DNA of 64,000 nucleotides from Sorex araneus. Taxonomy: Eukaryota; Chordata; Mammalia; Eulipotyphla; Soricidae. Below the pieces are notes generated by a model. The model made no database searches and had not been told where the DNA came from. It saw nothing but the letters and a program-made list of their open reading frames with translations. The stretch is from NCBI RefSeq assembly GCF_027595985.1, contig NC_073305.1, positions 31,892,939 to 31,956,938 on the forward strand, written 5' to 3'. Both the position numbers and the translations under genes were made by a program. Each line of letters begins with the position of its first letter. Within the stretch, counting starts at the first letter, position 1. Of this stretch, positions 29,601-32,600 are shown piece by piece.

Positions 29601-32600
29601 TGCTTGGAATTTTTATGACCTTGGGAAGTGCTTTGCATGGGGGAGGGTGCGGTGGGCAAGTGGATAATATCTTAAGTCTTAGTACCTTCCAGTGGAAGAA
29701 TTGATGTAGTAGCTTTGCAACTATAAAAGGATTTCACTAGTAAACTATAATACCTCAAACAAAAATATAATAAAAGAAAGTGACTGCTCCTCAGCTGTGG
29801 TAGTAATCTATGTCGTCTTCCCCAAAGCCAGACTGTAGTCAAGTCACATTCCTGTGCGTGTGCCATTCACAGCAAGGTGGTAAGGGATTCACGGTGCTGG
29901 TGAAGCCGGCAGGACCAGTACTCCTACCCAGGGTTAGGCCTGCAGGTTCTGCCCCAAGACCCCACCAAAACCAAGACTGTAAGGACTGAAGACAAACTCC
30001 TGTAGGGGGAAATAAAATATAAAATGGAAATTGTACTTCCAAAGAAAGGCTTTTTTTTTAAGTGTTTTGAACCACACCTGGTGATGCTCAGCGCTTACTC
30101 CTAGCTTTTCACCCAGGGATCATTCCTGGCAGCCTTGGGGGACCGTACTTGACCATTAAGCTAATCTGTAATCAGGTCATATTAAGTAATTGATTTGTGT
30201 ATTATAAGCATAGAGTGTGGTTTTAAAATATAAAGGGGTAAGAGTCTCGAGTAATTCCTGAGTGCAGGTCTGCTGTGCCCTACCTGCTGTACTATCTGGT
30301 TTGATTTTTGTTTTTGTTTCTGGGCCACATCTGGTGATTTCTCAGGCATACTCCTGGCTCTCCGCTCAGAAATTACTCCTTGCAAAAAAAAAAAAGAAAG
30401 AAAGAAATTACTCCTTTCTGTGATCAGGGGACCATATGGGATGCCTGGGATCAAACCCAGTTCAGTCATGTGCAATGCTCTACCCACTGTACTATCACTC
30501 TGGCCCCCAAAATAACATCTTTTTTTTAAACTTCACTCACAGAGGCATCATCAGTATTTTTTGCATGTAGTAGTAGCTTTTCATATGCCTTAACATTTCC
30601 CCCCTTCTTTTTCCCCCTTAAAAAAGACATTTCTTGGGGCTGGAGCAATAGCACAGCGGGTAGGGTGTTTGCCTTGCATGCGGCCGACCCGGTTTCGATT
30701 CCCAGCATCCCATATGGTCCCCTGAGCACTGTCAGGAGTGATTCCTGAGTACAGAGCCAGGAGCAACCCCTGAGCATCGCCAGGTATGACCCAAAAAAGA
30801 AAAAAGAAAAAAGAAAAAAAGAAGACATTTCTTGAGCATCAGTGGAGTTAGATATATTGAATAGTAATAGCTTGGCTGTAAAAACCTCCTCCAATCAGAT
30901 TTCCGTTGTTAACATTCTGTATTGGAATGTGCCTGTACTTTCAGTTAACTGATTCTTAGCAGTTTTGAAAACGCAGGTGTGTTTCTTCTCTACTTAGCTC
31001 AGACCTCAGGCAGTAGTCTGGTTAGAAATGAAACCTATTGGCTTAAAGAGCGTCAAGGCTTGTGCACCGAAGAACTCTGTCCGCCTAGGAAGTCAGCCAG
31101 GTGCACTGGGCCAGGGTCGGAGGAAAGTGAAGCTTCTGGATGAACGGTCTTACCCCGTTTCAGTTGGCAATGGGGATTGCTTTTGGACAAATAAAGACAC
31201 ATTGTGGAATTATATACAGACTCTCTCTGGTAAGAAATCACCCATTACAGAAGATAATAGTTTTTAAACCGATCCAAAATAATACCGAGTTCTTACAGGA
31301 AATTTGAAAATGCAAAGATAATCATTAAAATTAATGATTTTAACCCTGGGGGCTTTAGTGATAATAGGGGACTTGCCTTGCTCATGGCAGACCTAGGTTT
31401 GATCCCTGGCACCCCGTATAGCTCTCCAAGCTTGCCAGGAATAAGCCCTGAGCACTACAGGTGTGTGTCCCCCACCCCTACCAGAAAAAGCTATCCTGAA
31501 ATGTATTATTCTCGAAGTTTTATCTTGAATAATGGAATTTAGCTGAAAGAACAATTCGTTAACACATAAAGTACTATTGAGTGCAACTCTGAAATGTCTA
31601 GTATGGAAGCTGAGACCCGACCTACCCAAAAAAAGGTTCCATGGTATGAGGGTTTATTAGAATTGTTAGCCCTGTCCCAAGAAAATACGGCAGGAAGGGC
31701 ACTTGCCTTACATGCGGCCTACCCAGATTCGATCCTCGGCATCCCAGCTTGTCCTCAGAGCACTACCAGGAGTAATTACTGAGTGCAGAGCCAGGGGTCA
31801 GCCCTGAACAATGTTGGGTGTGATTCGAAAACCAAAAAAGTTAAAAAAGTATACCCTCTATAGAGGTTTCACGTGAGCTAAGGAGCTAATCCTTAATCAG
31901 GTCATACTAAGTGATTAATTTGTATATTTAAAATATAGAAGTAGAAGTGTGGGGATTTTGTTCTGTTTTGTTTTACTTTTTGGGTCTCACCCGGTAATGC
32001 ACAAGGGGTTACTGGAGTACCTGGTTCATGCACTCAGGAATTACTCCTGGCGGTCATCGGGGGACCATATGGGATGCTGGGAATCGAAACCAGATTGGCC
32101 GCATGCAAGGCAAACGGCCTACCTGCTGTGCTATTGCTCCAGCCCCAAAATGTATTTTTAAATCATAAAATGGCAGGCTGGAGCAATAATACAGCAGGTA
32201 GGGCATTTTTGCCTTGCACACAGCTGACCCGAGTTCAATCCCTAGCATCCCATATGGTCCCCCAAGCACCACCAGGAGTAATTCCTGAGTGCAAAGCCGG
32301 GAGTAACCCCTGAGCATTGCTGAGTGTGACCCAAAAAGCAAAACATATGTATACATGTATACATATAATGGCAAGAATCTGGAAAAGTTCTGGGAAAAAA
32401 AAAAGATGGGAACACTAAAAATTTAGCAGCTTCAAGCAAAGAGTTGAGTGGATGGGAAGAGACAGAACTGTAGAGGGGACTTATGTCATTGGCACATCTT
32501 GTTACAATGTTGTCTTCTGAGACAGGGAAGCTGGGAGTTGGTGCTAAAGTCTGATATGTGCCTGACCAGGACTAGCCAAGGTCAAGTCTGTGGGGATTGA

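What the first reader, a model, noticed from the sequence alone, without database searches (positions are those of the whole stretch)
30998..31229. Cryptic or alternative N-terminal exon of CNOT10 in intron 1
Repeat-free segment with acceptor and strong GTAAGA donor. Its ATG at 31028 gives 67 codons and leaves phase 1 at the donor, exactly the phase of exon 1, so splicing to exon 2 continues the CNOT10 frame. Two outcomes are possible: a longer N-terminus replacing MAADKPA, or, if spliced after exon 1, a stop at 31141 (poison exon). Both would change CNOT10 output.
Basis: partly seen in the sequence, partly recalled or inferred. Interest (0 to 1): 0.8.

Follow-up and report, generated by a model that had tools for sequence, protein, structure and literature searches.

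The report
Unproven extra exon in CNOT10
A stretch inside the first intron of the mammalian gene CNOT10 has in its letters what an extra exon would need, but nothing available here shows that the cell uses it, so for now it is a tidy but ordinary candidate.

Summary
The anatomy is right to the base: 30998-31229, AG before, GTAAGA after, ATG at 31028 with 67 open codons leaving phase 1, joining CNOT10 exon 2 (38116) in frame. One place was found in the 2.4-Gb genome. Splice pairs this good are expected about once by chance in such an intron (1.1-1.4). The in-phase frame on top is rarer (about 0.006-0.02 expected). But the same intron holds a second such object (33979-34195, 59 codons), and two repeat copies in the window give 67 and 78 codons. 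Codon usage had no power. A longer N-terminus needs a transcript without the exon-1 ATG; no second strong donor lies in the CpG island, though strong ones lie outside it at 25476 and 29096. After exon 1, inclusion gives a premature stop, as for 101 of 129 background pairs. Conservation and RNA could not be tested: no other mammal is held. Verdict: splice-competent candidate, pseudo-exon somewhat favoured over a real alternative exon; low interest unless junction reads or conservation appear.

The parts
26621..26642 (+). CNOT10 exon 1 coding part (MAADKPA + G, phase 1), donor CAG|GTGAGC
   Evidence: donor 7.8 bits; protein match 8bfi_B
30978..30997 (+). candidate acceptor, polypyrimidine tract and TTAG; 5.0 bits, rank 9 of 836 AG in intron 1
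30998..31229 (+). candidate exon, 232 nt, no other copy found
31028..31229 (+). 67-codon open frame from ATG, leaves phase 1 at the donor
31003..31003 (+). alternative exon start (TCAG|ACC), acceptor 4.95 bits against 5.01 for 30998
31141..31143 (+). TGA met if exon 1 is spliced to 30998 (86 nt before the junction)
31230..31235 (+). candidate donor GTAAGA; 4.9 bits, rank 7 of 663 GT in intron 1
38116..38210 (+). CNOT10 exon 2, frame continued by both exon 1 and the candidate
33979..34195 (+). second pseudo-exon in intron 1: 6.5/4.9 bits, phase-1 frame fully open, 59 codons from ATG (comparison object)

Best explanation
It is an intronic pseudo-exon of CNOT10: single-copy intron DNA that by chance carries a good acceptor, a good donor and an in-phase open frame. 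If the spliceosome includes it at all, the simplest event is low-level inclusion between exons 1 and 2, where the exon-1 ATG is read into a premature stop at 31141 (or 31014 from the second acceptor) and the mRNA would be expected to go to nonsense-mediated decay. Shown: the sequence anatomy and the chance rates. Inferred: absence of a selected function, and the decay.
For: About 1.1 to 1.4 splice pairs this strong are expected by chance in an intron this long, and one is seen at the full threshold, with a near-tied alternative acceptor. A second pair in the same intron (33979-34195) also has a fully open phase-1 frame with 59 codons, and two repeat copies in the window give 67- and 78-codon frames with better acceptors, in another phase and one of them on the other strand. 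Within the CpG island (about 25751-28000) the exon-1 donor is the only one of 3.9 bits or more. No Pfam or PDB relative of the 67 residues at E<=10. In 30938-30990 the only yTnAy branch-point-like motifs lie 45 and 49 nt upstream of the acceptor, with three AGs in between.
Against: The full conjunction (both sites this strong, phase-1 ATG frame of 67 or more) is expected only 0.006 times in intron 1 by simulation (12 in 24 Mb), and 0 of 38 strong background pairs (200 kb, both strands) have 50 or more codons. The sequence is not a detectable repeat. Strong donors outside the CpG island at 25476 (8.2 bits) and 29096 (7.1 bits) could belong to upstream exons that avoid the exon-1 ATG. Lack of conservation was not shown; it could not be tested.
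Confidence: 0.5

Rival explanations
1. A real alternative coding exon: a transcript that starts elsewhere or uses another upstream donor carries this exon as its first coding exon and makes a CNOT10 with 67 new residues in place of MAADKPA (60 residues longer).
For: ATG, open frame and phase fit exon 2; the chance expectation of the conjunction in intron 1 is 0.006-0.02; no other copy in the genome; strong donors at 25476 and 29096 could end upstream exons. A recalled lead from no call, which I am not sure of: human CNOT10 may have a longer isoform of about 804 residues, which would be 744 + 60.
Against: Needs the exon-1 ATG to be absent from the transcript; donors in exon 1 before that ATG score 2.0-3.1 bits against 7.8, the two strong other donors lie outside the CpG island, and the 200 nt before the one at 29096 hold six ATGs. 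Codon usage is neutral, but that test has no power here. No paper on such an isoform was seen in the listings.
Confidence: 0.36
2. A real poison or 5' untranslated cassette exon: regulated inclusion between exons 1 and 2 brings a premature stop and lowers CNOT10 output.
For: Inclusion after exon 1 gives TGA 31141, 86 nt before a junction, which meets the usual 50-55 nt rule (recalled).
Against: Generic: 101 of 129 background pairs of similar strength give a stop and 84 of 129 one more than 50 nt from the donor. The one paper with both terms is about Tra2b. Does not explain the long in-phase ATG frame.
Confidence: 0.1
3. Part of an unrelated transcript, sense or antisense, in the intron.
For: Not excluded; one antisense frame has an open stretch of 58 codons at one end of the exon.
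Against: No RNA family match at 30998-31229 (one match in the window, elsewhere); no protein relative of the sense frame.
Confidence: 0.04

Closest known systems
Intronic pseudo-exons (splice-site pairs in introns that are not normally used)
   Same: Good AG and GT sites at exon-like distance in an intron, at the density expected by chance
   Different: Has an unusually long in-phase open frame with ATG
Alternative N-terminal coding exons of mammalian genes
   Same: ATG and phase fit the next constitutive exon
   Different: Has an acceptor, so it needs an upstream exon that avoids the exon-1 ATG; such an exon is not shown, and there is no transcript evidence
Poison exons, such as that of Tra2b (PMC11791180, seen only as a search listing)
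   Same: Inclusion gives an early stop far enough from the junction
   Different: Ultraconservation, named in that paper's title, could not be tested here; CNOT10 is not known to me as a poison-exon gene (recalled)

Membership tests
Alternative N-terminal coding exon | Start codon with open frame in phase with the next constitutive exon | tested here: met
Alternative N-terminal coding exon | Functional-looking splice donor (and acceptor if not a first exon) | tested here: met
   4.9 and 5.0 bits; exon 2 has 0.4 and 4.5, and the best sites near 11 further CNOT10 exon matches range 1.6-7.6 and -0.7 to 7.9 (matrices recalled and approximate, boundaries of those 11 not verified)
Alternative N-terminal coding exon | A promoter or upstream exon giving a transcript without the main ATG | tested here: inconclusive
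   no other donor of 3.9 bits or more in the CpG island; strong ones outside it at 25476 and 29096; CpG low around the exon; start sites cannot be read from sequence
Alternative N-terminal coding exon | Coding-like sequence | tested here: inconclusive
   codon log-odds near 0, 264 of 659 open background stretches score as high; 9 of 12 known CNOT10 exon matches score negative in their own frame, so no power
Alternative N-terminal coding exon | Conserved splice sites and frame in other mammals | not testable with these tools
   the window's genome has no relatives held
Alternative N-terminal coding exon | Transcript junctions | not testable with these tools
   no RNA reads held
Poison exon | Inclusion brings a stop more than about 50 nt before a junction | tested here: met
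   86 nt, but so do 84 of 129 background pairs
Poison exon | Conservation and inclusion seen when decay is blocked | not testable with these tools
   no mammal comparison, no RNA
Intronic pseudo-exon | Splice pair at the density expected by chance | tested here: met
   1.1-1.4 expected, one seen at the full threshold
Intronic pseudo-exon | No use in mRNA | not testable with these tools
   no RNA reads held

The most novel reading that the evidence does not exclude
A conserved CNOT10 isoform begins its reading frame in intron 1 and puts a 67-residue N-terminal extension on this CCR4-NOT subunit, with the same exon acting as an off-switch when it is spliced after exon 1.
Probability: 0.15. Interest if true: 0.5.

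Novelty: new member of a known kind. Interest (0 to 1): 0.2.

Why it matters
CNOT10 is a subunit of the CCR4-NOT deadenylase. A second N-terminus or a poison exon would be a way to tune that complex. At present it matters mainly as an example: good splice sites plus an in-phase frame look convincing to a reader, yet a second such object lies 3 kb away in the same intron.

Tried and rejected
Retrocopy evidence: a processed copy carrying the candidate exon would have proved transcription; one place only was found for the exon (the peptide search gave two more places, at E 1.9 and 4.0 with 33% and 37% identity, taken as chance), and the only CNOT10-like match outside C4 at E<=0.001, C2:138180195-138180425, is cut off long before the 5' end. 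Repeat origin: no other copy found. Protein homology: none in PDB or Pfam at E<=10, none in viral contigs (18 pattern matches, none confirmed). Structured RNA: none at this place. Literature on a CNOT10 isoform or poison exon: searches (17 papers listed; 1; 1; 5; 1; 8 listed of 29); nothing relevant in the listings, which I did not open except PMC4967518, read by passages, which says that 19 exons of CNOT10 (NM_015442.2) were sequenced. PMC12045622 was read by passages only; one search listed 8 of 17 papers.

A mend made on checking: an earlier donor scan began at 26301 and so missed the front of the CpG island and a strong donor at 25476; one search covers 25001-30900. This leaves the odds as they were, since the donor lies outside the island and nothing shows that it is used.

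Full report
What was checked. The window is G000:C4:31892939-31956938 of a 2.4-Gb genome; it holds the 5' part of CNOT10 on the + strand. A CNOT10 protein query gave 18 places at E<=0.001, 17 of them in order along C4; residues 67-92 were not matched. Exon 1 ends at 26642 in phase 1, exon 2 starts at 38116, and their joined peptide matches PDB chain 8bfi_B over 39 residues.

The frame of the ATG is open over the whole exon: the nearest upstream stop is the TAG of the acceptor itself (30995), and it runs 89 codons in all, past the donor. A second acceptor five bases on (31003) scores nearly the same. It keeps the ATG frame but moves the stop after exon 1 from 31141 to 31014. The exon lies in a repeat-free stretch of about 530 bases with no other copy found in the genome.

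Splice sites against chance. With approximate, recalled weight matrices the acceptor has 5.0 bits (9th of 836 AG in 26701-38100) and the donor 4.9 bits (7th of 663 GT). The real exon 2 has 0.4 and 4.5 bits. In 20 background stretches (200 kb, both strands) 38 pairs of exon-like length (50-300 nt) reach both scores, that is 1.1 per intron 1; one is seen there. So splice sites alone are at the chance level.

Frame against chance. Of the 38 background pairs none has a phase-1 ATG frame of 50 or more codons; of 129 pairs within one bit, 2 reach 50 and none 60. Among 1331 looser background pairs of 200-264 nt, 18 (1.35%) reach 60. Taking the strong pairs of 200 nt or more (17 of 38; 54 of 129 within one bit) times 1.35% gives roughly 0.007 and 0.02 per intron 1. 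Dinucleotide shuffles of the exon reach 67 in 0.33% and 60 in 0.64% of 20,000. In 24 Mb of order-4 random sequence 12 of 2871 pairs reach 67, an expectation of 0.006 in intron 1 and 0.03 in 64 kb; within one bit 30 of 10,080 do, 0.014 in intron 1. The conjunction is therefore unusual for this one intron, but it was picked after reading 64 kb with several acceptable outcomes.

Counter-examples nearby. The scan of the window with the within-one-bit thresholds gave 46 pairs on + and 26 on -; five of these 72 have an ATG frame of 50 or more codons in some phase, at four loci. Two are the candidate with its two acceptors. One is 33979-34195, also in intron 1, also phase 1, fully open, 59 codons, acceptor 6.5 bits; its first 46 bases touch a repeat match in one search and it has none when searched alone. 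The other two (21373-21586 +, upstream of the gene; 32123-32389 -, in intron 1) are repeat sequence: 214 of 214 and 245 of 267 bases have other copies in the window or background, and each matched 40 scored places in the genome, itself included, of 1150 and 3373 candidates; I call them SINEs from memory. That two phase-1 objects lie in one intron is itself less likely than one under the random model, which I leave unexplained; the simplest reading is that real introns make open frames more often than the model does, but the real background (2 of 129 with 50 or more) does not show that strongly.

Coding signal. The codon log-odds of the exon is about 0 (0.2 bits over 77 codons; 264 of 659 open background stretches score as high). 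This is no evidence against coding: in the same measure 9 of 12 known CNOT10 exon matches are negative in their own frame. The 67 residues have no relative in PDB or Pfam at E<=10.

What inclusion would do. The exon has an acceptor, so it would be joined to something upstream. Within the CpG island (about 25751-28000) the exon-1 donor (7.8 bits) is the only one of 3.9 bits or more, and donors in exon 1 before the ATG have 2.0-3.1 bits. Outside the island there are strong donors at 25476 (8.2 bits, in AT-rich DNA 1.1 kb before the exon-1 ATG) and 29096 (7.1 bits, with six ATGs in the 200 nt before it), either of which could in principle end an upstream exon. Joined to exon 1, the exon-1 ATG (AAGATGG context) is read to a stop. 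The N-terminal isoform thus needs an extra, unseen start or exon. The early stop is not evidence of a poison exon: 101 of 129 background pairs give a stop after a phase-1 exon and 115 give a stop or a frame shift.

What could not be tested. No other mammal and no RNA reads are held. From memory, and from no call, I have an uncertain recollection of a human CNOT10 isoform of about 804 residues, which would be 60 more than 744 and equal to the gain here (67 minus 7). It is a lead to check first, not a result; the paper searches did not confirm it.

Judgement. Pseudo-exon 0.50, real alternative coding exon 0.36, real poison or untranslated exon 0.10, other transcript 0.04. These are judgements that weigh the chance rates against the rarity of real exons of this kind, not computed values. 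If real it would be a further member of a well-known kind.

Noticed in passing
L006 about 1507-1763 (G000:C2, about 138180201-138180457): Looks like a 5'-cut retrocopy of a partly spliced CNOT10 pre-mRNA: about 19 bases of the exon ending at window 51389 are joined directly to the exon starting at 53110, while the intron after that exon is kept to about 53346, at 91% identity.
   Followed up: partly
window 33979-34195 (+): A second pseudo-exon in CNOT10 intron 1 with a better acceptor, phase-1 frame fully open and 59 codons from an ATG.
   Followed up: partly
window 21373-21586 (+) and 32123-32389 (-): Repeat copies (SINEs by recall) that carry strong acceptor-donor pairs and open ATG frames of 67 and 78 codons; such repeats could be a ready source of exons in this genome.
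   Followed up: partly
window 25476 (+): The strongest donor-like site in 25001-30900 (AAG|GTGAGT, 8.2 bits), just before the CpG island; it could end an upstream exon of this or another transcript.
   Followed up: no
window 58729-58798 (-): The only Rfam match in the window at gathering scores, a tRNA at 30.5 bits against a cut-off of 29; possibly the head of a tRNA-derived SINE, not tested.
   Followed up: no
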